DNA from: a virus
Strand: one strand, 5' to 3'
Virus record (IMG/VR): IMGVR_UViG_3300049737_000274
Location: 1-25,560 of that record
DNA: 25,560 nucleotides
The translations under genes were made by a program, and so were the position numbers. This document shows positions 6,347 through 25,034 of this stretch, piece by piece (within the stretch, counting starts at the first letter, position 1; every line of letters begins with the position of its first letter). The notes under the pieces were generated by a model, which was not told the DNA's origin, searched no databases, and worked only from the letters and a program-made list of their open reading frames with translations.

Positions 6347-6366
6347 ACATAAATTAAGAGTGAAAC

Positions 6367-6858
6367 ATGGCAAAACAAGTAATAGCAACAGGCAGCGCAG
6401 CTAACGACGGAACCGGAGATACACTACGATCTGCCGGTACGAAGATTAATTCTAATTTTACAGAATTATACGATATGCGCGCGCGAGTAACTAAAACAGA
6501 AACTACTGCCTCAATTAGTAATAATGACCAAGATAAATTAACTTTTGCTGATAGCGATGTTGGTAAGTCATTTGTATTGCATGAGATTAAACCAAGTGCC
6601 GCATCTTATATTAAACTTTATACTGATTCAGATTTACGTGTAGCTGATATAGGTAGAGGACAATTAGCTTCTCCGGTAGGCGAAGGTTTAATAACTGAAT
6701 TTGTAACTCAAGCAGATAGCGCTATCAGATTTGCACCTGGCATAATCGGCTATACAGATTCTGATAATGTATTAGGAGTTTCAATGCAAGTTAAAAATTT
6801 AAGTGGTAGCACAACTGCAATAAGTGTTCGTTTAAAAGCGTTAAAATTAGAGATATAG
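6367..6858 (+). CDS. Small virion structural protein with fibre-type N-terminus
   Basis: This 163-residue protein begins with A-N-D-G-T-G-D-T-L-R-S-A-G-T-K-I-N-S-N-F (12-31), then T-E-L-Y. This short attachment-like module recurs at the N-terminus of many structural and fibre proteins of marine T4-like phages. The rest is beta-rich (S-F-V-L-H-E-I-K, Y-I-K-L-Y-T-D-S-D-L-R-V-A-D-I-G-R-G-Q, C-terminal V-S-M-Q-V-K-N-L-S-G-S-T-T-A-I-S-V) and looks like a small globular beta domain. It lies between the gp7-like and gp8 genes behind its own late promoter. A role as a baseplate or fibre-attachment component is inferred from position; there is no T4 counterpart I can name. Confidence 0.7.
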   Translation: MAKQVIATGSAANDGTGDTLRSAGTKINSNFTELYDMRARVTKTETTASISNNDQDKLTFADSDVGKSFVLHEIKPSAASYIKLYTDSDLRVADIGRGQLASPVGEGLITEFVTQADSAIRFAPGIIGYTDSDNVLGVSMQVKNLSGSTTAISVRLKALKLEI

Positions 6859-6868
6859 GAATAACACC

Positions 6869-8311: not shown

Positions 8312-8323
8312 TAGAGATAAAAA

Positions 8324-11300
8324 ATGGCAACAAATCTTTCAAATGTAACTTTCAGCAACGTTTACAAAGACGATTTTGCAGACAGTGATAATTTTCACAG
8401 AATACTATTTAATAGTGGTAAAGCATTACAAGCTCGTGAGCTTACACAAATGCAAACTATTATTCAAAAAGAAATCGAGAGATTTGGTTCAAATATTTTT
8501 AGACAAGGTGGAGCAGTTACTGGCGGTGGTTTAACAATTGATAATAAAGTCGAATTTGTTAACTTAGCTACAAACCAATTACCATCGACTCCGTCAACGC
8601 TTGTTGGAAAATATTATAAAGATAGTACAAACAATCTTATTATTAGAATTAAAGAAGTTTTAGTAGCAAATGCATCGACTTCAGATATTGCTATTGGTGG
8701 TGGAAGTGCAGTTAATCATAACGTTGATACATTAATTGTAGAATATGTAAGCACAAGTTCAGGTACGCCTGGATCCGCACCAGTAAGGTTGCAAGCAAGT
8801 AATATGCTACAAAGAATAGTTGCTGCTAATGATTCAACTTTGTTTAATGATGCTGTTAATTATCCGGATATGGCATTAACCGCTGGACATCCGAGTACAG
8901 GACAGAACATATCTGGTTTGGGATTAAAAGCACATATCGATAAAGGTAGTTTCTTTGTACAAGGGCATTTTGTATTTTGTAAAGCTCAAACAGTTACAGT
9001 ACAAAGATTTTCACCAATACCTAATACAATATTAGGATTTCAAATAGCTGAACAAATTATTAATACTGATGATGATACGTCTTTATTTGATAATCAAGGA
9101 TCGGCACCGAATTTATCATCGCCCGGTGCAGATAGATATAGAATACAATTAACTCTTACAACAAAAGTTCTTGCTGGTAGTAATAATTTTATATACTTAG
9201 CAAACATTGTAAATGGTAAACTTTCTGATGAAGTTAATTTAGATAATTCATATAGACAATTACAAGAAGTATTAGCTCTTAGAACAAAAGAAGAATCAGG
9301 TAATTATATTGTAAAAAGATTTGATTTAAATCCGAGTTCAATAACTTCTACAAAAGTCAATTATAATATATCAGATGGCATTGCGTATGTCGACGGTTAC
9401 AGATTAGATTTAGATGCAAAAAGTATCGAAGTTGATAGACCGATTACAACTCAAGAAGTTACAGGTGAATTAGTTAGCGCTAACTTAGGTAACTATGTTA
9501 TGGTTATCGGTCATCCTCTTTCGGGGACCGATTCTGGTAGTTTAGAAAACAATAATATACCGGATATATCTAATTTTCAAAAATTAAATTTATATGCAAC
9601 GTTTTCGGCGGGACAAGGAACAGCAGGTGGTAATACTGCTGATCATGCATCATTAGTTATTGGATCAGCTCGTTGTCGTGGACTTTATAGAGAAACGACT
9701 AGTAGATATCGAATGCACTTATTTGATATTCGAATGAAAGTTGGCCAATCATTTTCTTTTGTAAGAAGTATTGGTAGAGATCAAACAAATTTCATGAATA
9801 TTGTTTTAGAAGGTGATCAAGCTGTTCTTAAAAATACTACTAATAATGATTTGTTATTTTCACTTCCAAAAAATAGACCACAGTTCGATGGCATCACTGG
9901 TTCATCGATGATTGTACAAAGAAAATTTACTTTTACAACATCACTTGGTATGACTACTATTTCTGGTACAAACGGCGGTGGGTTACCTGCTGGCTGTGAT
10001 GCATTCTTTGGTGGATCGAACTGGGTAGTATCAGAAGTTGGAGAAGGAATCGTTGAAGGTGCAGTTTGTACAGTTGAAGCCGGCAATGTTACTTTTGCAG
10101 TTACTGGCTTACCTGTTGGATCTAAAACATTTAATGTGCTAGCACAAGTTCAAATGAGTGGATCTACATCTGTATCAGAAAGAACAAAAACATTAAAAGA
10201 GACTACAATAACTCGAGGTGCAACTTCTGATTCAGATGGTCGTGGATTTAAATTTATAAGTTTAGATAAACCTGATATCTTTGCAATCAAATCAGTTAAA
10301 GAAACAGATTCAAATGGTGTAGATATATCTGGCAATTTTGAATTAGATAACGGTCAAAGAGATAACTATTATGGTATCGGAAGATTATTGCCTAAAAAGA
10401 ATGTAGATATGCCAGCTGCTAATATATTCGTGAGGTATCAATATTTTGAACATGAAGCTTCTGTCACTGGTGTCGGCGGACAAAAATGTTATTTTAGTGC
10501 TACATCCTATAAAAATAATTCAAATGCAGTAGGATCATTAGATGGAACCGGAGTAACATATGAAACAATACCTGATTATACAAAGGGTAATGGACAAAAA
10601 GTTAATTTAAGAGATGTTTTAGATTTTAGACCGGTAGGTGTATTACAACACGATTTTGATTCGGCTGGTGATGTATTAAAAGCAAATGGTCATCACAATA
10701 TTACATTTGATTCAAATGGTCCAGATGTTGCTGGTACAGTACCTTTAATTCATTTACTACCACAGCCTGGCGGAACAGTTCAAGCGGACATAACATATTT
10801 CTTACCAAGAAAAGATAGATTAGTTGCTAATTCTTCAAATCTTAGAGGTGGCAGATCTGCAACTGGATCTGTTGATTATATACAGGGTTTACCAAGTTTT
10901 GATCCTGAACTACCAATTCTTCCAAATGGAGCTATGCCACTTTATAATATTAATTTAGGTGGAAATACGATTAATACGAAAGATATTACTACAGAGCCGT
11001 ATGCGAATAAAAGATTTCAAATGGCTGATATTGCAAGATTAGAAAGAAGAATTGATAATTTAGATGAAGTTACATCATTGAGTTTATTAGAATTAAATAC
11101 ATCAACACTTAACGTCGTTGATTCTGCTGGTAATTCAAGAGTTAAGTCTGGTTTCTTAGTTGATAATTTCAGAGATTATTCATTTACAGATATTACAAAT
11201 AATGAACAAAGAGCAAGTATTGATCCACAAGCAGGATATCTATCTCCACTCGTTGTTTCAAAGGTTACTAGATTAGCATACGATTCTGCAGATGGTAGTA

Positions 11301-13783: not shown

Positions 13784-14007
13784 TGAGTGATCATATAAGA
13801 GTTGAAGGGCATTCATATCTTATGAGAGATGGCCAATCTGGAGCGATAATAAATACAAATGTAAATGAAATGACACAAGCACGTATAAGAAAAGCTCAGC
13901 AGAAAAAACAACAAAATGAAATAAAAGAATTAAGAAGTGAACTTCAAGAAATGAAACAACTTTTAAATAAAATGATAGAGGTTAATGATGGCCGTCACAA
14001 CAGTTAA
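13783..14007 (+). CDS. Small coiled-coil virion-associated protein
   Basis: This 74-residue protein begins M-S-D-H-I-R-V-E-G-H-S-Y-L-M-R-D with S-G-A-I-I-N-T-N following, a short conserved opening that I recognise from small proteins next to structural genes in marine T4-like phages. Residues ~32-68 form a charged helix with heptad spacing (E-I-K-E-L-R-S-E-L-Q-E-M-K-Q-L-L-N-K-M), a probable coiled coil. The ATG overlaps the stop of the giant protein (TAATG), and its own end overlaps the next gene by 23 bases. It may be a trimerisation or attachment piece for a fibre or neck whisker; function is not established. Confidence 0.72.
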   Translation: MSDHIRVEGHSYLMRDGQSGAIINTNVNEMTQARIRKAQQKKQQNEIKELRSELQEMKQLLNKMIEVNDGRHNS

Positions 14008-14260
14008 TTTATCCGATACAATTTCAAATTGGGTGACTAAAACAAACACTATATCGACTAATTTAGGTGATAAATCTCTTTTAGCAACACCTGTTACGAC
14101 TGATATAGTTTCTGGTATTAACTCGATAAAAATGATAGATTCGTCTAGCGTGAAAACAATAACAAATTTCACAAGTTTTAATTTTGATAATCTTGTAACT
14201 ACACAAATACTTGATTCTGCTGGAGGTGTATTGAAAACGCTTAGAACCCCGGGATCTTAA
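13985..14260 (+). CDS. Small hypothetical protein in structural operon
   Basis: This 91-residue protein is not recognised. It is Ser/Thr/Asn-rich with a repeated beta character (V-N-L-S-D-T-I-S-N-W-V, T-N-T-I-S-T-N-L-G-D) and ends D-S-A-G-G-V-L-K-T-L-R-T. It lacks a signal peptide or membrane segment. Two adjacent ATGs (13985 and 13988) are possible starts; both follow GAGG at 13978-13981, and the upstream one overlaps the preceding gene by 23 bases. Its position, between a coiled-coil protein and a fibre-like protein, argues for a minor virion component. The D-S-A-G motif resembles elements of the fibre proteins downstream, but that is weak. Confidence 0.65.
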   Translation: MMAVTTVNLSDTISNWVTKTNTISTNLGDKSLLATPVTTDIVSGINSIKMIDSSSVKTITNFTSFNFDNLVTTQILDSAGGVLKTLRTPGS

Positions 14261-14273
14261 AGGTAATTATATA

Positions 14274-15302
14274 ATGCCACAACCATTAAAAGTTAATGCT
14301 GGTAATAATTTGCAAACCATGTCTGTTGCTGAGACAGACTATATGGTTTATCGTATGGGTACCACTTTTGCTTCTACAGATACTAATACAGGATCTGTAC
14401 AAGTTAACCCGTCGGATACAACCGGTTTAACTCTTATTGGAACATTCACTGATACAACAAGACAAAATGCTGTTGGTACGCACCCTGTTGGAACAAGTGT
14501 AAACAGTACAACGTATAATTTTTATCAAGATAGGACAGCGTACGCTGAAGGTTCTTTAGAAGTTCCACTTGAATATAATGCTAGTTCCGGAAATATAGAA
14601 CAACAGTCTACTGCAACTATCAATTCTACTTGGATAGATAGAGCACAAGATACAATTGTTGCTATGGGTTCAAATGCTGTAGGTTGTTATGTATTACAGC
14701 CTACTGCACCGAGTGGTGGTACTTGGACGGCAAAAGGTACGATAACAAATTCTTTAATTGACGGTACGACTAATAACACATATCTTTGGAGAAAAACTGC
14801 AGCTGCATCAGCTCCAACTGATATAAAACCAGTAAAATATACTAGCGGTGATATTCAAGTATTCACCGATGCAGAAATAAATGCATGGCACGGCAGGCTT
14901 CGTAATCAAATAAAAGACGGTATAGGTCAGTATCAATTATCTGCTTCAGCTCCAACGTCCGGTGGTACTTGGGCCGCGGCTGGAAGTGCTTTTGTTGATA
15001 CAAGAAAACAAGTAGGGAATGTAACTTACGTTGGTACCAGTTCTGCTAACTTTACAGGAACTTATACCGGAAATTTTACAGGAAACTATACTGGAAGCTA
15101 CGCTGGAACTTATACGAGATTTTTTTCTGGAGTAGCACACGGAAATTATACCGGCACTTATTCCGGTACATATGCTGGTACTTATAGCAATACCTTTTCC
15201 GGTACATATGCTGCATTTTATACTGGGTTTTATCAAGGATTAACTGTATTATCGTCAGACGAAACTGTGTCTAGTATGACTCTATGGGTGAGGACTGCAT
15301 AA
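14274..15302 (+). CDS. Fibre-like structural protein with Y/F-x-G tetrapeptide repeats
   Basis: This 342-residue protein is probably a short fibre or baseplate-attached decoration. The N-terminus (M-P-Q-P-L-K-V-N-A-G-N-N-L-Q-T-M-S, then E-T-D-Y-M-V-Y-R-M-G) resembles openings of other marine phage structural proteins. Two copies of an A-P-(T/S)-S-G-G-T-W segment appear near residues 144 and 227. Residues ~259-322 are a low-complexity array of four-residue units, (Y/F)-(T/S/A)-G-x, such as T-Y-T-G-N-F-T-G-N-Y-T-G, with aromatic residues every fourth position. A short C-terminal cap (V-S-S-M-T-L-W-V-R-T-A) follows. Similar Y-T-G arrays occur in structural proteins of T4-like cyanophages. It follows the previous gene by 13 bases with AAAGG just upstream. 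Specific role unknown. Confidence 0.75.
   Translation: MPQPLKVNAGNNLQTMSVAETDYMVYRMGTTFASTDTNTGSVQVNPSDTTGLTLIGTFTDTTRQNAVGTHPVGTSVNSTTYNFYQDRTAYAEGSLEVPLEYNASSGNIEQQSTATINSTWIDRAQDTIVAMGSNAVGCYVLQPTAPSGGTWTAKGTITNSLIDGTTNNTYLWRKTAAASAPTDIKPVKYTSGDIQVFTDAEINAWHGRLRNQIKDGIGQYQLSASAPTSGGTWAAAGSAFVDTRKQVGNVTYVGTSSANFTGTYTGNFTGNYTGSYAGTYTRFFSGVAHGNYTGTYSGTYAGTYSNTFSGTYAAFYTGFYQGLTVLSSDETVSSMTLWVRTA
15048..15240 (+). repeat. In-frame 12-bp degenerate repeat array encoding (Y/F)-x-G-x
   Basis: About sixteen imperfect 12-base units encode an aromatic-small-Gly-x tetrapeptide, at C-terminal residues ~259-322 of the fibre-like protein. Units vary at third positions and at the fourth residue (N, T, S, R), with irregular units around 15121-15145. 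The reading frame is conserved throughout, so this is selected coding repeat, not random slippage. Confidence 0.85.
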
Positions 15303-15305
15303 ATA
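15298..15305 (+). promoter_or_regulatory. Possible weak late promoter (CATAAATA)
   Basis: CATAAATA, one mismatch from the T4 late box, spans the stop codon of the fibre-like gene and lies 22 bases before the next ATG, with GAGGA (15316-15320) as ribosome site. Similar spacing to the perfect boxes elsewhere makes it plausible, but a one-off match in AT-rich DNA is expected by chance. Confidence 0.3.
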
Positions 15306-15326
15306 ATTTACACGTGAGGAAATATA

Positions 15327-15761
15327 ATGGATTATACACATTTACCAAGAACAATTAAAGAACCTTATTGGTCTAATGAAAAAAAAGATCAAGTTATTTG
15401 CCAATTTCACTATGAAAGTGGACCTATGGTTATTGCAGCTGTTTCAGATGCTGAAAAAGGTAACCCTGATTGGAAAGAAATCATGGAAACTTTTGCATTA
15501 GAAGAAATAGATAAAAATACTGAAAAAATAATTGATGAACATAAAAGAAAAAGTGATGTTACTAAAGAAGAAAATAAAGATAAAAAAGAAAAACAATCTA
15601 GTGATGTATTATTTAATTCTAAATTAGAAGCTTTCGAAATTGATATTATAAAAAATTCTAAAAATAGAAAATTAAAATCTAGAATTAGAAAAGCAAAAAA
15701 TTTGACAGAAGTTATAGCATTTTCTTCTGCGCTCATTTCAAAAGAAATAGATAATGAATAA
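15327..15761 (+). CDS. Charged hypothetical protein, conserved style in marine T4-like phages
   Basis: This 144-residue protein has a small N-terminal domain (K-E-P-Y-W-S-N-E-K-K-D-Q-V-I-C-Q-F-H-Y-E, then V-I-A-A-V-S-D, G-N-P-D-W-K-E-I-M-E) and a highly charged helical middle (~60-95, rich in K and E). The C-terminal helix contains K-L-K-S-R-I-R-K-A-K-N-L-T-E-V. The N-terminal motifs resemble small proteins found after fibre genes in marine T4-like phages. No catalytic motif, signal peptide or membrane segment is visible. Its position directly after a fibre-like gene would suit a fibre assembly chaperone, but that is a guess from position. It overlaps the following glycosyltransferase gene by eight bases. 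Confidence 0.7.
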   Translation: MDYTHLPRTIKEPYWSNEKKDQVICQFHYESGPMVIAAVSDAEKGNPDWKEIMETFALEEIDKNTEKIIDEHKRKSDVTKEENKDKKEKQSSDVLFNSKLEAFEIDIIKNSKNRKLKSRIRKAKNLTEVIAFSSALISKEIDNE

Positions 15762-16440
15762 TGGATTTCTTTATGTTGCAAGTTTAAATAAAAGATATTT
15801 AACTGCCGCAAAATATTCTGCAAGTAGTTTAAGAGATTATTGGCCTGATGCTAATATTACTTTATTTACTCACTCTGAGTGGGTAAAAGAATCAGATAAT
15901 ATATTATTTAATAATATTATAACTGAAAATGTACCCTATCACAAAAGAGCTAAACTATGGGCTTTAAATAAAACTTCATATAATCTTACTTGTTATATGG
16001 ACGTAGACACTTGGGTTGAACATAATGATATAAAAGATATTTTCAAGCAACATAAAAAATCTTCAGATATTACTATAACTAGAGCACGTTCATATGCAGC
16101 TGCTATTAATTCTAAATTTAATGGCAATGAATTAGAAGATCATTGTGGTTTATTCATCTATAATAATAAAAGGCAAACATTAAATTTTATGAATCAATGG
16201 TGGAAATTATATTTAAAACAAGAAAGTAAAGAATGGAAATGGGACACATCACTATATCCTGAATATTTAAGACCATGGGATATGTGGACATATTGGTGGT
16301 TACAAAATATGACTGAACATAAAATAAAAAGATCATATTTTTCAAAACCAGATGCTCGATGGAATTTTGTACATATCTATAAAGAAGAAGAACTTATGAA
16401 AACAGAACCAGTAATTTTACATAGGCCAATACCGCGATGA
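15754..16440 (+). CDS. GT-A-type glycosyltransferase
   Basis: This 228-residue protein starts with F-L-Y-V-A-S-L-N-K-R-Y, followed by A-A-K-Y-S-A-S-S-L-R-D-Y-W-P-D-A-N-I-T-L-F-T, the nucleotide-sugar-binding opening of GT-A enzymes of the GT8-like sort. A C-Y-M-D-V-D-T-W-V segment puts the metal-binding DxD at Asp83-x-Asp85. R-A-K-L-W-A-L before it and C-G-L-F-I-Y-N-N after it are typical acceptor/donor-site surroundings. It would transfer a sugar from a nucleotide-sugar donor; the acceptor is unknown, with candidates being virion fibres, a host surface glycan, or modified DNA. It opens the cargo block, overlapping the previous gene by eight bases and the next by four (ATGA). No membrane segment, so cytoplasmic. 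Confidence 0.82.
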   Translation: MNNGFLYVASLNKRYLTAAKYSASSLRDYWPDANITLFTHSEWVKESDNILFNNIITENVPYHKRAKLWALNKTSYNLTCYMDVDTWVEHNDIKDIFKQHKKSSDITITRARSYAAAINSKFNGNELEDHCGLFIYNNKRQTLNFMNQWWKLYLKQESKEWKWDTSLYPEYLRPWDMWTYWWLQNMTEHKIKRSYFSKPDARWNFVHIYKEEELMKTEPVILHRPIPR

Positions 16441-17051
16441 AAGAAATACAAATAAAAAATGAAGAATTAATTGAATTATTAGAAAATATTAAAAATTGGT
16501 TTGATTTAAAAAATAAAGATGATGTAAAACTTAACGGTAAAGTTGATAAAGATGAGTATTATACATCAGAAGAATATTTTAAAAATATAAATCAAGAAAA
16601 ACATATAGGTTATCCTGAAGTTACTCTTGGTATGGATTTAAACAATGTAGATTCAACGCCATTAGATTGGAGAGAAGAAATAAGAAATTTTGATAATAAA
16701 ATGAAATCTATATTATCTTCTCCGAATTGTGCTGTAAAGATGTATTATCCTAAAGGTGGTTATATGAGTTGGCACAATAATCATAATGCATCAGGATTTA
16801 ATATTTTGTTATCACACACCGAAAATGGCAATGGTTTTTTTAGATATAAAGATCCTCAAACAAAAGAAACTATTACAATGAATGATGAACCTGGATGGAC
16901 TGCAAAGGTTGGATATTTTGGAAGCAATAAAGAAAAAGATAAAATATTTTGGCACTGTGCTCGAGCATATGAAGATAGATTAACATTAGGTTTTGTTATA
17001 CCAAATCAAAACATGTGGGAAATGATGTGCGATGATATTCAAGACCAATAG
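16437..17051 (+). CDS. 2OG-Fe(II) oxygenase-like protein
   Basis: This 204-residue protein resembles the small 2-oxoglutarate/Fe(II) oxygenases frequent in marine T4-like phages. The core is Y-Y-P-K-G-G-Y-M-S-W-H-N-N-H-N-A-S-G-F (residues ~102-120), then G-F-F-R-Y-K-D-P, W-T-A-K-V-G-Y-F-G, and F-W-H-C-A-R-A-Y-E-D-R-L-T-L-G-F. Likely iron ligands are His113 and the distal His173, with Arg181 as 2OG-binding residue. The usual acidic ligand after the first histidine is not obvious: positions 115 and 117 are Asn. Such enzymes hydroxylate or otherwise oxidise proteins, sugars or nucleic acids. It is coupled to the glycosyltransferase upstream by an ATGA overlap; its 3' end overlaps the convergent gene by 13 bases. 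Confidence 0.78.
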   Translation: MKEIQIKNEELIELLENIKNWFDLKNKDDVKLNGKVDKDEYYTSEEYFKNINQEKHIGYPEVTLGMDLNNVDSTPLDWREEIRNFDNKMKSILSSPNCAVKMYYPKGGYMSWHNNHNASGFNILLSHTENGNGFFRYKDPQTKETITMNDEPGWTAKVGYFGSNKEKDKIFWHCARAYEDRLTLGFVIPNQNMWEMMCDDIQDQ

Positions 17052-17785
17052 TGCTCAAATCCTTCATATAACCAATCATACTTTGGTCCATTAAATAGAC
17101 ATATAGTTCTATCTTTTATATGGTGTAAGTATATAGTATCATAATCTAATTTTTCATCTCCTGTTTCTTTTATTTTATTTCTAGTTAATTCAGCAGTAGA
17201 AATATCATTTTCTGTTTCACCAAATATTCTTGAGTAGATAATACCTTTAGGAAAAAAATCTATTTTCATTTTTTCGTGAAAAATAAAACGATCTATACCT
17301 TTATATTGAACCATAAAATAATCCGGATCTTTTTGAAAATGATTCCATATATCTACGCAATTATTAGATTTCCATAATAATACACTTGAGTTTGCGTACA
17401 TATCCCATCTGTCTTTTTCTCTTTTATGAGAACCATCGCTCATTAAATTGCCTTTCCAATATGCTCTAACCATCATTAAATCATCAGATAAATAGTTAAA
17501 CAAATGATCGATATTATTTTGTATTATTACATCGTGATCAAAATATAAACATGGACCAGGAGGCACAAAATCTTTTTGAAACATTGCTAATTTATTCCAA
17601 TAAATTTCTAAATAATTATCTGGTATTGGAATAATATTAATATTGTTATTTAAACCAGACGCGTTTTCTGTATAGCAATAAAATTTAAAAGGAATAGATA
17701 TACTACGAGAAACCATTTTATATAACCGGTTTGTAATATCGGAATTATATTTGGCACCCCATTTAACGCATATTACATTAACCAT
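17039..17785 (-). CDS. Glycosyltransferase (GT-A), inverted in the operon
   Basis: This 248-residue protein is the only gene on the minus strand. The N-terminus I-C-V-K-W-G-A-K-Y, followed by F-K-F-Y-C-Y-T-E-N-A-S-G-L, and the C-L-Y-F-D-H-D-V-I-I segment (DxD at Asp83-x-Asp85) mark a GT-A glycosyltransferase of a kind common in marine phages. H-H-I-K-D-R near the C-terminus is the usual late metal-binding His. It is clearly paralogous to the protein at 21351-22091: same length, same F-Y-C-Y-T-E-x-A-S block at residues 35-43 and DxD within a few residues. It ends inside the oxygenase gene (13-base convergent overlap) and starts 12 bases from the divergent methyltransferase-like gene, so its promoter must lie within that gene's coding region. 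No TATAAATA box is visible there. Confidence 0.85.
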   Translation of the reverse strand: MVNVICVKWGAKYNSDITNRLYKMVSRSISIPFKFYCYTENASGLNNNINIIPIPDNYLEIYWNKLAMFQKDFVPPGPCLYFDHDVIIQNNIDHLFNYLSDDLMMVRAYWKGNLMSDGSHKREKDRWDMYANSSVLLWKSNNCVDIWNHFQKDPDYFMVQYKGIDRFIFHEKMKIDFFPKGIIYSRIFGETENDISTAELTRNKIKETGDEKLDYDTIYLHHIKDRTICLFNGPKYDWLYEGFEHYWS

Positions 17786-17797
17786 GAAGATATATAT

Positions 17798-18397
17798 ATG
17801 AAATTTTATATAGATGATATAACAAAAAAAGTATTAAAAAAATTTCCTCATAGAGTAGAAGATATTGTTAATTCATTTGATCATAATAAAATTCACGCTA
17901 AAAATGAATTAGTTAGTAGAATTAAAAATTTACAAAGTAGAGGTAATTTACGTAATCCAATACCAAGAATAAGTATTGTTGGTGGTTGGTATGGAAACAT
18001 ATTAATTTCATTATTAGATGAATATAAAATAAATTATGAAAAAATAGATTTTTATGAAATAGATGAAGAAGCTATTAAGATAGCTAAAAATCATTTTTTG
18101 TTTGATATAGATAATATAAATTTTAAACTACAAGATGCAACAAAAATAGAATTTTCTGGTAATAGACATTTAATTATAAACACTTCAGCTGAACATATGA
18201 ATTCATTAAATATAAAAAGTGGAATTTTAGCAGTTCAATCTAATGATTATACATCAGTAGATGATCATACTAATTGTGTTAATAATGTACAAGAATTAAT
18301 TGATCAGTATAAATTTAAATTAAATAAAATTTGGTATAAACTTACTACGGAATATGACAATAAGTATAATAGATTTACGGTTATAGGTAGAATATAA
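17798..18397 (+). CDS. SAM-dependent methyltransferase-like protein
   Basis: This 199-residue protein has a class I methyltransferase layout. An N-terminal helical part is followed by I-S-I-V-G-G-W-Y-G-N at residues 58-67 (SAM-binding loop), I-D-F-Y-E-I-D-E-E-A with Glu87 as candidate ribose-binding acid, Q-D-A at 112-114, and I-I-N-T-S-A-E-H-M at 126-134 in the motif IV position. The G-G-W-Y-G loop variant is seen in some phage methyltransferase-like proteins. The substrate is unknown; the motif IV sequence is not the NPPY of DNA amino-methyltransferases nor a cytosine-C5 PC motif, so this is not an obvious DNA methylase. Start is 12 bases from the divergent glycosyltransferase; the next gene begins one base after the stop. 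Confidence 0.75.
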   Translation: MKFYIDDITKKVLKKFPHRVEDIVNSFDHNKIHAKNELVSRIKNLQSRGNLRNPIPRISIVGGWYGNILISLLDEYKINYEKIDFYEIDEEAIKIAKNHFLFDIDNINFKLQDATKIEFSGNRHLIINTSAEHMNSLNIKSGILAVQSNDYTSVDDHTNCVNNVQELIDQYKFKLNKIWYKLTTEYDNKYNRFTVIGRI

Positions 18398-18398
18398 T

Positions 18399-19376
18399 AT
18401 GTATTATTCTGATATAGAAAACCTTCATGTTGAATTAACAAACAGATGTAATGCTGGTTGCCCATCATGTGTTAGAACTGGAGATTTTCCTGGGTTTGTA
18501 TCTGAAACTATTTTTAATAGCGGAATTCACGATTTATCGCTAAATGATATGAAAAATATATGTGAACAATTACCAAAACTTAAATGGATCCATATGTGTG
18601 GCAATCTTGGTGATCCAGCTGTTTCCCCAGAATTTAAAGAAATAGTACATTATCTAAATTCAAAAAATATTTATTGTACTATATCAACAAATGGTGCACC
18701 AAGAAAACCAGAATATTGGAAAGAAATAGCATTAAAAGGTGTTAGCGTTTCATTTCACATAGATGGTGATGAAGATACGAATCACTTGTATCGTATTGGA
18801 ACAAACTATTATAAAATTATTGATAATGCAAAAGCATTTATTAAAGCTGGTGGTCATGCTCGATGGGTTTTTATACCTTTTAAACACAATGAACACGTCA
18901 TAGAAAAATGTAAAAATTTAGCTAAACATTTAGGTTTTAAAGAATTTAACGTAAAAAAATCTTATAGAGTGACTAACTTAAGCCCAAAGGCAAAAATAAA
19001 AATAGAATTACCTAAAAATGAAAATTTAATAAATTTTGGAGCTACTAATAATAAAGGAGATAAATGTATTAGTTGTAAAGTAAGTAATAATAATGAAATT
19101 TATTTTTCATGTAATGGTGAAATTTATCCTTGTTGTTGGTGGGCTGGATATTTTTGGAGTAAAAAATTTTCGAATAAAGAAAATAAATTTTCGTATTTAT
19201 TAGATTTTGAAAATAATTTTAAAAAAAGAGATATCAAAGATATTGTAAATGACTATATTAAAAAAACAGATGTTTATAAATTAGTATGGGATCTTAAAAA
19301 ATTTAGTGTATGTAATAAAAAATGTGGTAATGATAAACACAAAGATAGATATGTTGAAAGCAGAAAAAAATTATGA
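18399..19376 (+). CDS. Radical SAM protein with SPASM-like C-terminus
   Basis: This 325-residue protein has the radical SAM CxxxCxxC cluster motif at Cys17, Cys21 and Cys24 (R-C-N-A-G-C-P-S-C). G-N-L-G-D-P at 68-73 takes the place of the GGEP motif, and S-T-N-G at 96-99 follows. The C-terminal part carries extra cysteines in a SPASM-like order: Cys223/Cys226, Cys238, the C-N-G-E-I-Y-P-C-C-W block (Cys245/246) and Cys305/Cys309, likely holding one or two auxiliary Fe-S clusters. SPASM proteins usually modify peptides or alcohols, but several marine phage members have no known substrate. It lies one base after the methyltransferase-like gene and overlaps the PP-loop gene by an ATGA, so the three are probably coupled. 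Confidence 0.87.
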   Translation: MYYSDIENLHVELTNRCNAGCPSCVRTGDFPGFVSETIFNSGIHDLSLNDMKNICEQLPKLKWIHMCGNLGDPAVSPEFKEIVHYLNSKNIYCTISTNGAPRKPEYWKEIALKGVSVSFHIDGDEDTNHLYRIGTNYYKIIDNAKAFIKAGGHARWVFIPFKHNEHVIEKCKNLAKHLGFKEFNVKKSYRVTNLSPKAKIKIELPKNENLINFGATNNKGDKCISCKVSNNNEIYFSCNGEIYPCCWWAGYFWSKKFSNKENKFSYLLDFENNFKKRDIKDIVNDYIKKTDVYKLVWDLKKFSVCNKKCGNDKHKDRYVESRKKL

Positions 19377-20116
19377 TAAAATTTGAAGTAGATAACCAAT
19401 CAATAGAAATTGATGTTGAAAAATTACAAAAATATAAAAAAATTGGAATTGCATTTTCTAGTGGAACTGATTCAAGTTTAATATTTTGTTTATTAGCTAA
19501 GTATGTACCAAACATAGAAATCATACCATGGTATGGAATAGAATTTCATCAATTACCCGGTTTAGATTTTGTTAAAGACGCACATAAAAAAATAGTTAAT
19601 AATTACCCTAATGCTAATATAGCACCAATGCGATATTTTGGTATAGATAAAAAAGATCCTATTTGGATAAAAAAATTTGAAAATTCAAAAAACAATGATT
19701 TTCTTGTCAGTAAAAACATAAAAAATTATATAGTTGATGAAGCACATAATGAATATCTTAGAACTGGCATTACAAATCTTAATGTTTTTGGTACGTTATC
19801 AGCACCACCAAAATCAGAATGTATTAAATATAATTTTATTAAATATGTCCAACCATATCGTTTTAATCCAAATGGTGATATATGGAGTATAACTAACACA
19901 AAAATATGGCAACCTCTTAAATTTGTAAATAAAAAATTTGTTGCTGGAATGTTTAAAAAAGAAGGTCTTATGGATTGGTTATATTCCCATTTAAATTCAT
20001 GTGCAAGTAGAGATCCAGTAAAAACTAAAAATTTTACATACCCCTGTAAAACCGATTGTTATCAATGTCATGAAAGATATTGGGGTTTTGGAACATATGA
20101 TGGATCAACAAAATGA
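19373..20116 (+). CDS. PP-loop ATP pyrophosphatase with QueC-like cysteine cluster
   Basis: This 247-residue protein has the PP-loop near the N-terminus, I-A-F-S-S-G-T-D-S-S at residues 26-35, a variant of SGGxDS. PP-loop enzymes adenylate a carbonyl or carboxyl group, releasing pyrophosphate, so that a nucleophile such as ammonia or sulfur can replace AMP. The C-terminus has Cys210 and then Cys225, Cys229 and Cys232 followed by H-E-R and G-F, resembling the zinc site and C-x-x-C-x-E-R ending of QueC-type proteins. Length fits (QueC ~220-230). QueC makes 7-cyano-7-deazaguanine, but no FolE, QueD or typical QueE is visible here, so that specific role is not supported. Coupled by ATGA overlaps to radical SAM genes on both sides, it likely acts in the same pathway. 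Confidence 0.78.
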   Translation: MIKFEVDNQSIEIDVEKLQKYKKIGIAFSSGTDSSLIFCLLAKYVPNIEIIPWYGIEFHQLPGLDFVKDAHKKIVNNYPNANIAPMRYFGIDKKDPIWIKKFENSKNNDFLVSKNIKNYIVDEAHNEYLRTGITNLNVFGTLSAPPKSECIKYNFIKYVQPYRFNPNGDIWSITNTKIWQPLKFVNKKFVAGMFKKEGLMDWLYSHLNSCASRDPVKTKNFTYPCKTDCYQCHERYWGFGTYDGSTK

Positions 20117-21354
20117 AAAATTTTCCAAAAAATTTCTGTCCCCAACCATTTACATATATTTATCCTAATCATCATGGTGCATGGAAACCTTGTTGTAAAT
20201 GTCAGAATTATCCTCAGAAAAAAATATCATTTGATGAATGGTGGTATGAAGATAAAGAGTTAAAAGATTTAAGAAATACTTTATTGTCTGATACTCCTTA
20301 TGATGAATGGAATGAAAATTTACAAAATGTTTGTGAACGATGTTTTGGTCCAGAAAGCAGAGGTGTAAAGTCTTATAGACAACATTCAGTAGATTCATGG
20401 TCACACCCAAGTGTAAAAGATAATTTATTAGATATGATAAATTCTTTTAAAGAAACAGGAAAGTTAGTAGCAAATCAACGAACATTTATAGTTAAAGTAA
20501 GAGGTTTTGGTAATGAATGTAACTTAAAATGTTATATGTGTGTTCCTCATAATTCAACAGCTAGAAATACTGAATTACTTAAAGCAAATGAAGATAGTGT
20601 TAAGATTTTCTACCCTAAAGGTCATCAAAGATTAATTAAAAATAAAACTATACCATTAGACAATGAGTATGAAAAACAACAAATGTATGATGTTATAGAA
20701 AAAATGAGTCCATATATAGCTCAGTTTAATTTTTCTGGTGGAGAGCCAGTAATGATAAAAGAATACTATGAGTTAATGGATAAAATTATTGAAACAGGAC
20801 AAAATCAAAACGTCCGAATTCATATGAATAGCAATCTTACTAGACTTAATTTGGGTAATAAACACTTAGAAGAATACATTCCAAAATTTAAAATGTTTTT
20901 TATACAAGCGTCAATTGATGATATATATGAAAGAGATGAATGGTCTCGTTATCCCTCAAAATTTGAAAAAGTTATGGAGAATTACAAGTATCTTCAAAAT
21001 AATAAAAAAATACAAATTATTGTGCACCCAACTTGGTCTCTACTAAATGTGGCAAATGCTGAAAATATATTAAATTTTTTTCTAGCTAATAGTATGAGAA
21101 TAAATGATAATATAAATTTTGTATCTAATCCATCAGTTTTACATATAAAAAATTATCCACACAAAGACTTTTTTATAGAAAAATATAAAAATTCTAAATT
21201 TAAAATGGTGAGAGAATTATCTCTTGAATTGCAAGCAGAATTTAATCAAGCAGAGTTTTTAAAAGCAATTAACTATATTAAAGATTTAGATAGAATTAGA
21301 AAAACAAAAAGTTGGGAAGTATATCCTGAATTAAGTGAATTTTTAAAACCATGA
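20113..21354 (+). CDS. Radical SAM protein with N-terminal twitch/SPASM-like cysteines
   Basis: This 413-residue protein differs from the neighbouring radical SAM gene in architecture. Residues 1-80 carry an auxiliary cysteine set: Cys9 in F-C-P-Q-P-F, Cys27/28 and Cys30 in W-K-P-C-C-K-C, and Cys74/Cys77 in C-E-R-C-F-G. The radical SAM motif is then internal, Cys136, Cys140 and Cys143 (E-C-N-L-K-C-Y-M-C), followed by F-S-G-G-E-P at 207-212 and H-M-N-S-N near 236-240. This layout is that of the twitch-domain radical SAM proteins common in marine T4-like phages, whose substrates are not known. ATGA overlaps link it to the PP-loop gene upstream and the glycosyltransferase downstream. Confidence 0.87.
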   Translation: MKNFPKNFCPQPFTYIYPNHHGAWKPCCKCQNYPQKKISFDEWWYEDKELKDLRNTLLSDTPYDEWNENLQNVCERCFGPESRGVKSYRQHSVDSWSHPSVKDNLLDMINSFKETGKLVANQRTFIVKVRGFGNECNLKCYMCVPHNSTARNTELLKANEDSVKIFYPKGHQRLIKNKTIPLDNEYEKQQMYDVIEKMSPYIAQFNFSGGEPVMIKEYYELMDKIIETGQNQNVRIHMNSNLTRLNLGNKHLEEYIPKFKMFFIQASIDDIYERDEWSRYPSKFEKVMENYKYLQNNKKIQIIVHPTWSLLNVANAENILNFFLANSMRINDNINFVSNPSVLHIKNYPHKDFFIEKYKNSKFKMVRELSLELQAEFNQAEFLKAINYIKDLDRIRKTKSWEVYPELSEFLKP

Positions 21355-22091
21355 TTAATATACTAACACTAAAAGTTGGGACAAAATATTCACATGAATA
21401 TGTAAACAAATTATTTTTTAATTTAAATAAAAATAGTAATACTAAGTTTAATTTTTACTGTTATACTGAAGATGCATCAAAATTAGCATCAGGTATAAAA
21501 GTAATACCACTTGAAAATCCTGATAAATTTCAACTACAATGGCATAAATTAAAATTACATAAAAATGATTTTGCAGGTATATCGCAAGGTGAAAAATGTT
21601 TACTATTAGATATTGATTGGATTGTAATTGATGATGTAGATGAAATATTAACTTATAATTTACCACACAATCATCTTGGTTGTTTTGAAAGATGGTGGTC
21701 TAATCTTAGACATTTCTGTAAGTTAAATGGTGGATTTCAAATGTTTTATATGGGTGAAACAAATTATCTTTGGGAAAGATTTAACAAAAACCCAGAATAC
21801 TGGCAAAGATATTATGTGGAAAATGGATTTGCAGAAGGGCCAATAAATGGTGAACAAAACTTTATTGATGAACATACAAAAAATAAACATTGGTTACCAA
21901 TGGAATGGTTCGCAAAATATCATAGTGAAGATTGGATTAAAATAAATCGTAACTGGCAAAGAGATGTTAATCCAGAAGAGCCATATTATATGGGAGGTAC
22001 TTTTGCTGAAACTATTAAGATGGTACATTTTTCAAACTCTGAAAATTTAATTCATAATAGTAATGAACATTGGATAAAAGATTATTGGTAA
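21351..22091 (+). CDS. Glycosyltransferase (GT-A), paralogue of the inverted one
   Basis: This 246-residue protein opens with I-L-T-L-K-V-G-T-K-Y and F-N-F-Y-C-Y-T-E-D-A-S-K-L, then L-Q-W-H-K-L-K-L, and has C-L-L-L-D-I-D-W-I-V with the DxD at Asp87-x-Asp89. N-G-G-F-Q-M-F near residue 125 and V-H-F-S near the C-terminus complete the GT-A picture. It shares length and the same N-terminal landmarks with the minus-strand protein at 17039-17785; I estimate roughly a third of N-terminal residues identical by eye. It closes the cargo block. Its ATG overlaps the stop of the radical SAM gene, so its acceptor may be the product of that pathway. Confidence 0.85.
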   Translation: MINILTLKVGTKYSHEYVNKLFFNLNKNSNTKFNFYCYTEDASKLASGIKVIPLENPDKFQLQWHKLKLHKNDFAGISQGEKCLLLDIDWIVIDDVDEILTYNLPHNHLGCFERWWSNLRHFCKLNGGFQMFYMGETNYLWERFNKNPEYWQRYYVENGFAEGPINGEQNFIDEHTKNKHWLPMEWFAKYHSEDWIKINRNWQRDVNPEEPYYMGGTFAETIKMVHFSNSENLIHNSNEHWIKDYW

Positions 22092-22144
22092 ACTATGGTG
22101 ATGTATAAAAACCTAGCTGACATAAAAAGATTAGAACTTTTCAT

Positions 22145-22152
22145 TATAAATA
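22145..22152 (+). promoter_or_regulatory. T4-type late promoter (TATAAATA), upstream of pair
   Basis: A perfect TATAAATA box sits in the 141-base gap after the cargo block, 80 bases before the fibre-associated gene. A hairpin lies between it and a second box at 22198. It may be a second start site or a remnant. Confidence 0.5.
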
Positions 22153-22170
22153 ATGGTATTAATATTCTTT

Positions 22171-22185
22171 TCGGTTGAAAGCCGA
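22171..22185 (+). terminator. Small hairpin, possible terminator or RNA stabiliser
   Basis: TCGGTT-GAA-AGCCGA can form a six-base-pair stem (one G-T pair) with a three-base loop, or a four-pair stem with a larger loop. It is preceded by CTTT and followed by GACTTTATATT, which is T-rich but not a clean T-run. It separates the cargo from the fibre genes, where a terminator would be useful. In an AT-rich sequence a GC-rich stem here stands out, but it is short. Confidence 0.35.
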
Positions 22186-22197
22186 GACTTTATATTA

Positions 22198-22205
22198 TAT
22201 AAATA
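22198..22205 (+). promoter_or_regulatory. T4-type late promoter (TATAAATA) for fibre genes
   Basis: A perfect late box lies 27 bases before the ATG at 22233, with AAGG (22221-22224) as ribosome site. Its distance to the start matches the other late boxes in the window, making this the likely main promoter of the fibre gene group. Confidence 0.7.
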
Positions 22206-22232
22206 ACATTAATAGTTTTTAAGGTATTTTTT

Positions 22233-22595
22233 ATGGCTCGGTACGAAGAATTTACAATAGATAAAGGTTCAGATATTTCAATTAAATTGGAATTAACTGA
22301 TGCTGGTGGAGCTAAGAAAAACTTAACTGATCATTCTTTAAGAGCGAGAATAAAAAAGAATTATAATGATAGCGCAGGAGAAGCTGTTGAATTTTTTACA
22401 GCAATACCTCTTGCAACTCAAACTGATGGAGTAGTAACTTTAGGATTAACACATGGTCAAACTAAAGGTATGAAAGCAGGAAGATACGTGTTTGATGCTG
22501 AGCTAAATCATATTGCTGCAGGTGGTCTTCGAATAAAGGAACGTGTTTTAGAAGGTGTCATTACTGTTACTCCTTCTGTAATGGATTCGGCATAG
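22233..22595 (+). CDS. Small fibre-associated structural protein
   Basis: This 120-residue, beta-rich protein opens E-F-T-I-D-K-G-S-D-I-S-I-K-L-E-L-T-D, continues with S-L-R-A-R-I-K-K, and has G-V-V-T-L-G-L-T, then M-K-A-G-R-Y-V-F-D-A-E-L and V-L-E-G-V-I-T-V-T-P-S-V. That strand order is the Ig-like/BppU-N-terminal pattern of small proteins encoded just before tail fibres in many marine phages. It may be an adaptor between baseplate and fibre. Ten bases separate it from the fibre gene, with AGGAG (22594-22598) serving that gene. Confidence 0.72.
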   Translation: MARYEEFTIDKGSDISIKLELTDAGGAKKNLTDHSLRARIKKNYNDSAGEAVEFFTAIPLATQTDGVVTLGLTHGQTKGMKAGRYVFDAELNHIAAGGLRIKERVLEGVITVTPSVMDSA

Positions 22596-22604
22596 GAGAA
22601 ATAA

Positions 22605-25034
22605 ATGGCGACAATCGTAAATACAATCACTCAATCCACTCCGAGCTCATCACCAGCTGAGGGTCAAGAAAAGAAAAATTTCGATTCGTCAAGAATAGAC
22701 TTTTTATCAAGCTCATTTGCAAACATTGATTCCGGAAGATATACAAATCTTCATGCTGATTCAGCGCATGTTAATACATTAACAGCTAATAGTATTAGCT
22801 TTACAGGATTAAATGTCGACTCTGGTAATATTACCACGTTATCAACAACGACTTTAAATCCTGCTACTATCAATGCTACAACAATTAACGGTGATTCTGG
22901 TAACTATACAAACCTTACGGCAGTTAATTTAACTGCTACTAATTTAAATATTAGTAATGGTACTACACTTTCTTTTGCAGGTATCTTTACAAATTTAACG
23001 GCTGATTCAGCCAATATTACAAACATCACATCTAATACTTTAAAAAGAACTCCTCCTGCTGGTGTTACACCTGGCAAATACGGTCAAATGGGAGGTAATA
23101 GTAAATTATCTAAAGCACCAATTATAACAGTTGATTCTTCTGGATTTATTAATATCACAGATCAAGGTGCTGTTGCTGGTGTTGCAAGTACTGCTTTTGA
23201 TAGTGCTAGTTTTAACTTTAGTATTAATACTACTGATAGTGGAAGTACGCCAGTAGTTAAAATGGCTCACACAAGAAAGCCTGGTTTAGCGGCAAGTGCA
23301 AGTTTTTACGGAACAGCATCAAAAGTTCCAACAATAAAAATAAATCAATACGGTCATGTTGATAGTATTGCTTTAGTTGACATTGCAGGAATTAGTGGTA
23401 CAAATTGGGATTCTGCTAATTCAACATTTCAAATTACTCAAACAGATGGTACTACAGTAGGTGAAGTTATTAATGGTTGGGGTGACAACCAAAAAATATA
23501 TTTCGGTGCTGGACAAGATTTAGAAATATATCATGATACGTCAAACAGTGTTATTAGAGATGGTGGAACTGGTAGTTTAATTATTGCTGGTGATACAATT
23601 CAAATAATGAATGCAGCACAAACAGAAACAATGGGTTTGTTTCAACAAGATGCTGCTACTTCAATACATTATAATAATGATCCTAAATTATTAACAACCG
23701 CAACAGGTGTTCAAGTAAGTGGTACCGCAGTAACAACTGCTGGGATTACTGCAGGTAGTCATATCTTACCGGCAACTGATGGCGACGTTGATCTTGGATC
23801 TTCTACAAAGAAATTTAGAGATTTGCATTTAAGCGGTTCAACTCTTAAAATTGGAACTATACAATTTAAAGACAGCGCATCCGGATTAAGAGTAGAAAAG
23901 ATTGCTGGCAATGAAGTAGTTCCAATTGTTTTTAGAGAACTCGAAGTTGATTCTGCCACAGTATCAGGTAATATAACTGCCGGTACTTTTACAGGTGACG
24001 GTAATGCTTTAACTAATTTTAATGCAGCTCAAATTAGAACACATATGTCTGCAGGAACCGGTGTTGGATTTGCAAGTGGCGTTATATCGATTGGCCAAGC
24101 AGTAGGTACTGGCAATGATGTACAATTTAAAGATCTTTTATTAACTGGAGACTTAACAGTTCAAGGTACTACAACAACTATTAGTAGTGCAACAATGGAT
24201 GTTACAGATAAAAATATCACTATAGCAAAAGGTGCTGCTGATGCTTCAGCCGCAGACGGTGGTGGTATAAACATTGAAGGTGCTGGTGCTAACTTTACTT
24301 ACACAAGTAGTAATGATAGATGGAATATGAATAAAGCCCTTGTGGTTTCAATGGTACACGGCAACGTAACTGGTACTGTAACTGATATTAGTAATCATAG
24401 TACTGATACTCTTTCAGAAGGTTCTACAAATCTATATTTTACACAAGGTAGAGCAAGACAATCTATTAGCGGCGACAAAGGTTTAACTTATAACTCTGGC
24501 ACCGGAATAATGGATGTTGATTCATCAAATATTATAGAATTTACAAGAGCTTCTTTAGGAGGAGATAAAGGTTTAACTTATAATACTACAACCGGTGTCA
24601 TGGATGTTGATTCTGCTAACGTCAAAGAAATGTTTACTGGTGCAAATAACATAGTTTATAATAATTCCACTGGACAAATTCGTACAAATATAACAAGTGC
24701 AGATCTATCAACAGATAGTTCTTATTTAACTGCCACATCATCTAATCAACTAATATCATCGATATCAGCATTAACTCACAGAAGCGTAAAGTTTTTAGTA
24801 CAAGTTCGTGTAGATGCTGGTGGTGAAAAAGTTCAAACTTCGGAAATAAATGTTATACATCAAGGTGGTAATGCGTTTATGACTGAATACGGTAGAGTAG
24901 GTAATACTGACGATAATTTGGCTACATATGATGCAGATATAAATTCAAACAATTTAAGATTGTTGGTGACTCCAGCAAATGCAAATACTGAATTTAAAGT
25001 ATTTAAAACGGCAGTCAAAATTAATACAACTTAA
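22605..25034 (+). CDS. Tail fibre protein with repeated modules
   Basis: At 809 residues this is a marine T4-like tail fibre. Residues ~35-150 are short D-S-A-x-(I/V)-x-x-L-T-A beta repeats typical of a fibre shaft. Around 291-330 is G-D-N-Q-K-I-Y-F-G-A-G-Q-D-L-E-I-Y-H-D, and around 386-415 P-A-T-D-G-D-V-D-L-G-S with K-F-R-D-L-H-L, both familiar fibre modules. Around 510-560 is L-T-V-Q-G-T-T-T-T-I. Residues ~600-622 contain T-N-L-Y-F-T-Q-G-R-A-R, another common fibre element. Three G-D-K-G-L-T-Y-N-type repeats follow (residues ~622-715). The C-terminal ~95 residues form a small cap domain (V-K-F-L-V-Q-V-R-V, T-E-Y-G-R-V-G) seen at ends of similar fibres, perhaps for receptor binding or trimerisation. 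Confidence 0.83.
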   Translation: MATIVNTITQSTPSSSPAEGQEKKNFDSSRIDFLSSSFANIDSGRYTNLHADSAHVNTLTANSISFTGLNVDSGNITTLSTTTLNPATINATTINGDSGNYTNLTAVNLTATNLNISNGTTLSFAGIFTNLTADSANITNITSNTLKRTPPAGVTPGKYGQMGGNSKLSKAPIITVDSSGFINITDQGAVAGVASTAFDSASFNFSINTTDSGSTPVVKMAHTRKPGLAASASFYGTASKVPTIKINQYGHVDSIALVDIAGISGTNWDSANSTFQITQTDGTTVGEVINGWGDNQKIYFGAGQDLEIYHDTSNSVIRDGGTGSLIIAGDTIQIMNAAQTETMGLFQQDAATSIHYNNDPKLLTTATGVQVSGTAVTTAGITAGSHILPATDGDVDLGSSTKKFRDLHLSGSTLKIGTIQFKDSASGLRVEKIAGNEVVPIVFRELEVDSATVSGNITAGTFTGDGNALTNFNAAQIRTHMSAGTGVGFASGVISIGQAVGTGNDVQFKDLLLTGDLTVQGTTTTISSATMDVTDKNITIAKGAADASAADGGGINIEGAGANFTYTSSNDRWNMNKALVVSMVHGNVTGTVTDISNHSTDTLSEGSTNLYFTQGRARQSISGDKGLTYNSGTGIMDVDSSNIIEFTRASLGGDKGLTYNTTTGVMDVDSANVKEMFTGANNIVYNNSTGQIRTNITSADLSTDSSYLTATSSNQLISSISALTHRSVKFLVQVRVDAGGEKVQTSEINVIHQGGNAFMTEYGRVGNTDDNLATYDADINSNNLRLLVTPANANTEFKVFKTAVKINTT
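24471..24720 (+). repeat. GDKGLTYN fibre repeats, set 1 (C-terminal part of 809-residue fibre)
   Basis: Units start at 24471, 24561 and, more diverged, 24642 (spacing 90 and 81 bases). Each encodes G-D-K-G-L-T-Y-N, then a T-G turn and M-D-V-D-S-(A/S)-N followed by a short helix-like tail (K-E-M-F or I-E-F-T). The same unit recurs in the next gene. Confidence 0.85.

What the first reader, a model, noticed from the sequence alone, without database searches (positions are those of the whole stretch)
15754..22091. Eight-gene modification cassette inserted between baseplate and fibre genes of a T4-like phage
Three glycosyltransferases, a 2OG-Fe(II) oxygenase-like protein, a methyltransferase-like protein, two architecturally different radical SAM proteins and a PP-loop ATPase lie together, mostly with ATGA overlaps, in the middle of the late structural region. 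Individually such genes occur in marine T4-like phages, but this set looks like one coordinated pathway. Its position between structural blocks points to making or decorating something on the virion (fibres, baseplate) or on the host surface during late infection. The product is not known to me.
Basis: partly seen in the sequence, partly recalled or inferred. Interest (0 to 1): 0.8.

Follow-up and report, generated by a model that had tools for sequence, protein, structure and literature searches.

The report
Swappable phage fibre-and-modification gene cassette
A marine T4-like virus carries a tail-fibre gene together with enzymes that probably decorate that fibre chemically, and closely related viruses have exchanged the whole set as one block, which suggests that these viruses change the chemistry of their attachment fibre as well as its protein sequence.

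Summary
The eight genes are real, but they are not one eight-gene unit. GT2 lies on the opposite strand. GT1 and the 2OG oxygenase belong with the upstream fibre g342 and its neighbour g144: in 56 loci with a resolvable site, a YxG-repeat fibre and GT1+2OG are always both present or both absent, and they switch together at 9 of 9 independent points of a VrlC tree (p=0.004). The other six genes are a variable islet. In sister phages at about 87% DNA identity, window 14262-22099 (fibre, g144 and all eight genes) is replaced en bloc; a second sister pair breaks at the same left border. Within the islet, the order rSAM1-PPloop-rSAM2-GT recurs in four other contigs. The PP-loop protein belongs to a QueC-like phage family; the 'methyltransferase' profile matches spermidine synthases best. 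The exact eight-gene order was found only in this phage. Best explanation: a host-recognition cassette whose enzymes hydroxylate and glycosylate the receptor-binding fibre, with interchangeable tailoring genes. Host-surface modification is a serious rival. The general kind (hypervariable host recognition cluster with GTs and radical SAM cassettes) was published in 2020; the fibre-bound GT1+2OG pair and the nested anatomy appear new.

The parts
14262..22099 (.). Outer exchange unit: fibre g342, g144 and all eight enzymes, replaced en bloc in the sister phages L096/L097
   Evidence: blastn: window 2881-14261 at 86.6% and 22100-24065 at 85.6% identity to L096; between them only a 92-base match at 15609-15699. 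A second sister pair, L119/L124, loses alignment at the same left border, the end of g91.
14274..15302 (+). g342: repeat fibre (342 aa) with [YF]xGx[YF] repeats; probable substrate of GT1 and 2OG (inferred)
   Evidence: 10 overlapping motifs in the window; up to 207 in phage C48C1
15298..15305 (+). CATAAATA, one mismatch from the T4-type late promoter core, 22 bases upstream of g144
   Evidence: sequence; a consensus match only
15327..15761 (+). g144: small protein between fibre and GT1, probably a fibre chaperone (inferred from position; changes with the fibre)
   Evidence: homologues behind the fibre in about 80 loci; only 36 residues at 58% identity in sister L096
15754..16440 (+). GT1: GT-A type glycosyltransferase-like protein, always next to 2OG
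   Evidence: invariant DxD (D83, D85) in 35 homologues; marginal profile match to glycogenin, E 0.04; 32 of 32 islets together with 2OG
16437..17051 (+). 2OG: 2-oxoglutarate/Fe(II) oxygenase-fold protein
   Evidence: AlphaFold2 pLDDT 92.9; best PDB folds are PolD, AlkB and prolyl-4-hydroxylase, E 4.5e-4 to 8e-4
17039..17785 (-). GT2: glycosyltransferase, antisense to the neighbouring genes
   Evidence: phrog_1962, E 1.4e-7
17798..18397 (+). MT: SAM-binding, spermidine-synthase-like protein; first gene of the inner exchange unit
   Evidence: family profile to spermidine synthase 4uoe, E 3.1e-8; no methyltransferase cut-off reached
18399..19376 (+). rSAM1: radical SAM protein with SPASM-like C-terminal cysteines
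   Evidence: PF04055 at 40.7 bits; close homologue L003 matches SPASM at 19.3 bits, just below its cut-off of 21.5
19373..20116 (+). PPloop: QueC-like PP-loop ATPase with a C-terminal four-cysteine motif
   Evidence: family: QueC in 15 of 29 members, best E 1.6e-11; the window member alone has no significant match
20113..21354 (+). rSAM2: N-terminal twitch-domain radical SAM protein
   Evidence: NF033640 at 259 bits, cut-off 170
21351..22091 (+). GT3: glycosyltransferase, paralogue of GT2; right edge of the inner exchange unit
   Evidence: phrog_1962, E 3.6e-9; 28-29% identical to GT2
22145..22152 (+). TATAAATA, T4-type late promoter core
   Evidence: one of 4 exact matches in the window, all on the + strand and intergenic
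22198..22205 (+). TATAAATA, T4-type late promoter core upstream of g120
   Evidence: the same motif precedes g120 in most relatives
22233..22595 (+). g120: L-shaped tail-fibre assembly-like protein, right border of the site
   Evidence: phrog_3304, E 3e-14, and phrog_1084, E 1.2e-15

Best explanation
The region is a host-recognition cassette of a marine T4-like phage, built of nested exchangeable modules. Shown: fibre g342, g144, GT1 and 2OG form one unit, and the YxG-repeat fibre always comes with GT1+2OG. Six further genes are a variable islet between this unit and the next fibre-assembly gene. Sister phages have exchanged fibre, enzymes and islet together. Inferred: late in infection 2OG hydroxylates side chains of the fibre, whose repeats are rich in Asn, Asp, Thr, Ser and Tyr, and GT1 glycosylates the fibre in the cytosol. 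GT2 and GT3 extend the glycan. The spermidine-synthase-like, radical SAM and QueC-like enzymes make or tailor an unusual sugar substituent. The product would be a chemically modified receptor-binding fibre whose type of modification is exchanged with the fibre.
For: Fibre type and GT1/2OG concordant in 37 + 19 loci with no exception; 15 + 17 in the VrlC-anchored loci alone, which were not selected for the enzymes. They change together at 9 of 9 independent points of a VrlC tree, p=0.004. En bloc replacement with the fibre in sister phages, repeated border in another pair. The MT-like gene, equally close, does not follow fibre type, so linkage alone is not the whole account. In eight relatives with antisense islets the only minus-strand TATAAATA of the locus is at the islet start, which suggests late expression. 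None of the eight proteins has a predicted membrane segment.
Against: No substrate is demonstrated. GT1 and 2OG are adjacent to the fibre, so linkage contributes to the association. The six-gene islet occurs with both fibre types, so its tie to the fibre is weaker than that of GT1+2OG. 2OG has Asn at the usual acid position of the metal site. The window's MT-GT3 block has no exact late motif directly upstream. Published authors read similar GTs as host O-chain enzymes (PMC7029224).
Confidence: 0.5

Rival explanations
1. Host-surface modification: the enzymes alter host LPS or capsule sugars during infection, for instance to block superinfection or to free progeny. They lie in the fibre island because receptor binding and receptor change evolve together.
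For: GT8-type GTs in the host recognition cluster of pelagimyophages were so interpreted (PMC7029224). Sugar-pathway genes occur in related islets: DegT aminotransferase and carbamoyltransferase in L017, similar genes in Mosig.
Against: Strict bond of GT1+2OG to one fibre type. No membrane protein among the eight. Late-promoter motifs in relatives point to the time of virion assembly, rather late for superinfection exclusion.
Confidence: 0.28
2. Linkage only: GT1+2OG and the islet are cargo at a recombination hotspot next to the fibre. They are exchanged with it because they are adjacent, and their substrates have nothing to do with the fibre.
For: Two sister pairs share the same left border. 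The islet is highly variable, with 6 of 36 islets holding only GT1 and 2OG. The rSAM1/PP-loop genes moved between divergent phages.
Against: GT1+2OG stay with YxG fibres through nine independent switches while the nearby MT-like gene does not follow fibre type. In C48C1 the pair persists with no islet.
Confidence: 0.14
3. Peptide, nucleobase or small-molecule pathway: the radical SAM and QueC-like proteins make a modified peptide, nucleotide or cofactor, and the glycosyltransferases are unrelated neighbours.
For: SPASM/twitch radical SAM proteins often act on peptides (established knowledge). The PP-loop family is QueC-like. L015 has a nitroreductase-family gene next to the PP-loop.
Against: No precursor-peptide gene was noticed, although very short ORFs were not screened. 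rSAM1 has CxxxCxxC, unlike QueE. No other queuosine gene was seen. A GT directly follows the module in most loci.
Confidence: 0.08

Closest known systems
Host recognition cluster (HRC) of pelagimyophages and cyanomyophages (Zaragoza-Solas et al. 2020, PMC7029224)
   Same: Hypervariable island downstream of VrlC with fibres, GTs and radical SAM gene cassettes that differ between close relatives. The window's site follows a VrlC homologue.
   Different: In the passages I read, no fibre-type-bound GT1+2OG pair, no exchange unit containing the fibre, and no QueC-like module is described. The gp14 border lies outside the window.
Modification island of Pelagibacter phage Mosig EXVC030M
   Same: Same site behind VrlC, with homologues of rSAM1, MT and GT3, a split radical SAM/SPASM-like pair, nitroreductase, carbamoyltransferase and aminotransferase genes.
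   Different: No YxG fibre and no GT1+2OG; no PP-loop gene was recognised in it; the islet is antisense to the structural genes.
Radical SAM cluster of Campylobacter phages CP220/CPt10 (Timms et al. 2010, PMC2853527)
   Same: Interchangeable cluster of several radical SAM genes with GT-like genes in a T4-like phage; one CP220 protein is 29% identical to rSAM1.
   Different: Five radical SAM genes plus a glycine amidinotransferase, which the window lacks; no GT1, 2OG or YxG fibre was found there.
Phage C48C1 (OQ984149) fibre region
   Same: Same order YxG fibre, g144, GT1, 2OG, g120.
   Different: Giant 3347-aa fibre and no islet between 2OG and g120.

Membership tests
Host recognition cluster (HRC) | Begins downstream of VrlC in a T4-like structural region | tested here: met
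   g1819 aligns with Mosig VrlC (29% over the C-terminal 300 residues); gp6, gp25 and gp8-like are adjacent
Host recognition cluster (HRC) | Hypervariable between close relatives, with fibres and glycosyltransferases | tested here: met
   en bloc replacement against L096/L097; GT2, GT3 and fibres present
Host recognition cluster (HRC) | Ends at neck gene gp14 | not testable with these tools
   the record ends at 25560, inside a fibre gene
CP220/CPt10 radical SAM cluster | Glycine amidinotransferase among several radical SAM genes | tested here: not met
   no amidinotransferase match among the eight proteins
NF033640 twitch-domain radical SAM | Score above the curated cut-off | tested here: met
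   rSAM2 259 bits against 170
QueC-like PP-loop ATPase (PF06508) | PP-loop motif and C-terminal cysteines | tested here: met
   SGxDS and C..C..C pattern in 41 ORFs of the family, window included
QueC-like PP-loop ATPase (PF06508) | Profile match above cut-off | tested here: inconclusive
   15 of 29 family members match at E <= 0.01, the window protein itself does not
2OG/Fe(II) oxygenase | Double-stranded beta-helix fold | tested here: met
2OG/Fe(II) oxygenase | Metal triad HxD/E...H | tested here: inconclusive
   invariant H113-N114-N115, H173 and R181: both His and the Arg present, acid replaced by Asn
SAM-dependent methyltransferase | Score above a methyltransferase cut-off | tested here: not met
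   Methyltransf_25 16.8 bits against 27; best family-profile match is spermidine synthase
GT8 / glycogenin | Significant profile match of GT1 | tested here: inconclusive
   best E 0.04; Glyco_transf_8 in 6 of 35 members at E <= 0.05

The most novel reading that the evidence does not exclude
The YxG-repeat adhesin of these ocean phages is the substrate of its own dedicated hydroxylase and glycosyltransferase, a collagen-like hydroxylate-then-glycosylate system in a phage. The glycan is further diversified by exchangeable radical SAM, QueC-like and spermidine-synthase-like modules, so that phages exchange fibre chemistry as cassettes to change or hide receptor binding.
Probability: 0.3. Interest if true: 0.85.

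Novelty: new variant of a known kind. Interest (0 to 1): 0.62.

Why it matters
Marine T4-like phages carry host-recognition islands full of enzymes whose substrates are unknown. A glycosyltransferase/oxygenase pair that follows one fibre type through at least nine independent switches gives a concrete substrate to test (g342). Separating this pair from the interchangeable tailoring genes lets each be assayed apart. If the fibre is modified, phage adhesins carry exchangeable covalent decorations, a chemical layer of host recognition.

Tried and rejected
Eight genes as one conserved operon: rejected. rSAM1 as obligate partner of the PP-loop: suggested by window, L003, L014, L015 and L095, rejected by L119/L187, which have the PP-loop without a radical SAM gene; in the MT-anchored set the association is weak (26 of 29 loci with PP-loop have a radical SAM gene, 37 of 51 without). 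Deazaguanine (QueE/QueC) pathway: the rSAM1 motif does not fit. PDB search with the single PP-loop protein: chance hits only. PP-loop structure model from four sequences: poor (pLDDT 53.7); it shows no more than a PP-loop fold. Bacterial source of the PP-loop: the first genome scan found none; the second found L095 in a Rhodobacteraceae bin, whose genes match the phage islet of L014, so it is probably a misbinned phage contig. A whole-genome search centred on that bin was not accepted. Scan with the full MT alignment: too diverse for patterns, replaced by seven closer sequences. tblastn in isolated phages found few relatives. Literature searches for phage-encoded fibre hydroxylation or glycosylation gave nothing on point in the listed papers.

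Full report
WHAT IS THERE. The window is a whole IMG/VR virus record of 25,560 bases. Its first half encodes a T4-like baseplate set (tail lysozyme hub, PAAR, gp25, gp6, gp8-like) that ends in an 1819-aa protein homologous to VrlC of Pelagibacter phage Mosig. Then follow g74, g91, a repeat fibre g342, a small protein g144, the eight ORFs of the finding, a fibre-assembly gene g120 and further fibres. The eight ORFs are intact, four junctions are 4-base ATGA overlaps, GT2 is antisense, and the segment is AT-rich.

GENE IDENTITIES. rSAM1 and rSAM2 exceed curated radical SAM cut-offs; rSAM2 is a twitch-domain protein, NF033640. GT2 and GT3 are paralogues that match phrog_1962. GT1 has an invariant DxD and only marginal similarity to glycogenin. 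2OG has no Pfam match, but 38 aligned homologues give a confident model (pLDDT 92.9) whose best PDB matches are 2OG/Fe(II) dioxygenases. In every member the acid of the usual metal motif is Asn. The 'methyltransferase' profile matches spermidine synthases best, E 3e-8. The PP-loop protein belongs to a phage family: 41 ORFs in 38 loci (not dereplicated) have both the PP-loop and the C-terminal cysteine motif, and 15 of 29 representatives match Pfam QueC.

TWO UNITS, NOT ONE. In phage C48C1 the site reads giant YxG fibre, g144 homologue, GT1, 2OG, g120, with nothing between 2OG and g120. A scan with the 2OG pair gave 271 relatives. In nearly all of the 80 loci kept, GT1 and 2OG follow fibre and g144, while what comes next differs. 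Of 36 non-redundant complete islets, 32 have GT1 and the same 32 have 2OG. Six hold only these two genes. The MT-like gene is in 27, a GT2/GT3-type gene in 30, rSAM1 in 17 and the PP-loop in 4. Of 197 other islet genes, 140 are antisense to the structural genes.

FIBRE TYPE AND GT1+2OG. To avoid selecting on the enzymes, another scan was anchored on VrlC. Pooling both sets, 37 loci have a fibre with at least four YxGxY-type motifs and have GT1/2OG, 19 have neither, and none is discordant. Loci found through 2OG could only add to the first class; the VrlC-anchored loci alone give 15 and 17. On a VrlC tree of 53 rows, fibre type changes at 9 independent, well-supported points and GT1/2OG changes with it every time (sign test p=0.004). 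The genes are adjacent, so linkage contributes; but the MT-like gene nearby does not follow fibre type.

EXCHANGE UNITS. The window and its sister contigs L096/L097 are 86.6% identical up to 14261 and 85.6% from 22100. Between these points, fibre, g144, GT1, 2OG and the six genes are replaced by a non-repeat fibre, a different g144 and another islet with GTs, an MT-like gene and two rSAM2-type genes. In the pair L119/L124 the alignment also stops at the end of g91. A second, inner unit exists: against L119, whose backbone is 37-49% identical in the larger proteins, g144 is 59%, GT1 71%, 2OG 63%, GT2 60% and GT3 54% identical, but MT 34% and PP-loop 25%. The order rSAM1-PPloop-rSAM2-GT still recurs in L189, L191, L198 and L201, phages without GT1/2OG beside g144. 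In the divergent phage L003, rSAM1 is 74% and the PP-loop 69% identical to the window while structural genes are mostly 35-43%, and the module is on the opposite strand. This points to transfer between lineages.

EXPRESSION. TATAAATA, the T4-type late promoter core, occurs four times in the window, always on the + strand and intergenic. The number is not above chance; the placement is the informative part. In most relatives it precedes g120. In eight antisense islets it lies just before the first islet gene and is the only such motif on that strand of the locus. This suggests late expression but was not measured. The window's own MT-GT3 block has no exact motif directly upstream.

MECHANISM. 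Shown: co-inheritance, exchange units, fold class of 2OG. Inferred: 2OG hydroxylates and GT1 glycosylates the repeat fibre, GT2 and GT3 extend the glycan, and the remaining enzymes tailor a sugar. No substrate is demonstrated. Host-surface modification is the main rival and the published reading of similar GTs (PMC7029224).

NOVELTY. The general kind is known: a hypervariable host recognition cluster with GTs and radical SAM cassettes (PMC7029224), and interchangeable radical SAM modules in Campylobacter phages (PMC2853527). Both papers were read by term search, not in full. I found no description of the fibre-bound GT1+2OG pair, the QueC-like phage family or the nested exchange units, but only an open-access library was searched.

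LIMITS. ORFs in loci were called mechanically and labelled with profiles built here; some labels are weak. Many loci are contig fragments and several are near-copies. The tree is a quick one. Fold-match E-values are modest. The lengths and identities of unlabelled islet genes were read by eye where no search is cited.

Noticed in passing
16773-16781 (2OG residues 113-115) and 37 aligned homologues: Invariant His-Asn-Asn where 2OG oxygenases normally have HxD/E; the metal ligands of this family are unclear.
   Followed up: partly
L007:23012-33055 (phage C48C1): A 3347-aa fibre with 207 overlapping [YF]xGx[YF] motifs; phages with an empty islet tend to have giant repeat fibres, those with full islets short ones. 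Not tested against phylogeny.
   Followed up: partly
L095 (FZLS01000099.1): A contig filed under a Rhodobacteraceae bin carries a phage islet like that of L014, with genes that look like a TctA-type permease, an ATP-grasp and a sulfotransferase; probably misbinned phage DNA.
   Followed up: partly
L014:13177-14207 and 15028-16054, L017:11224-12221, L011:14426-15392: Radical SAM proteins split from their SPASM-like domain, which is a separate 107-123 aa ORF directly downstream.
   Followed up: partly
L017:13829-18100: Islet with carbamoyltransferase, radical SAM and DegT aminotransferase genes, with counterparts in cultured phage Mosig.
   Followed up: partly
L018:13164-14982: Two adjacent asparagine-synthase-like genes on the minus strand of a related islet.
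   Followed up: no
L006:18320-19723: Amidinotransferase-like gene close to a radical SAM protein and a collagen-like fibre in another myophage contig; named by eye.
   Followed up: no
690-2531: gp5-like hub protein whose C-terminal part (residues 374-581) matches families without known function (phrog_26249, phrog_34863), in the place of a tail lysozyme domain.
   Followed up: no
6367-6858: A 163-aa protein shares its first 36 residues (64%) with a far larger baseplate-fibre connector protein of C48C1, as if the gene had been cut down or replaced.
   Followed up: no
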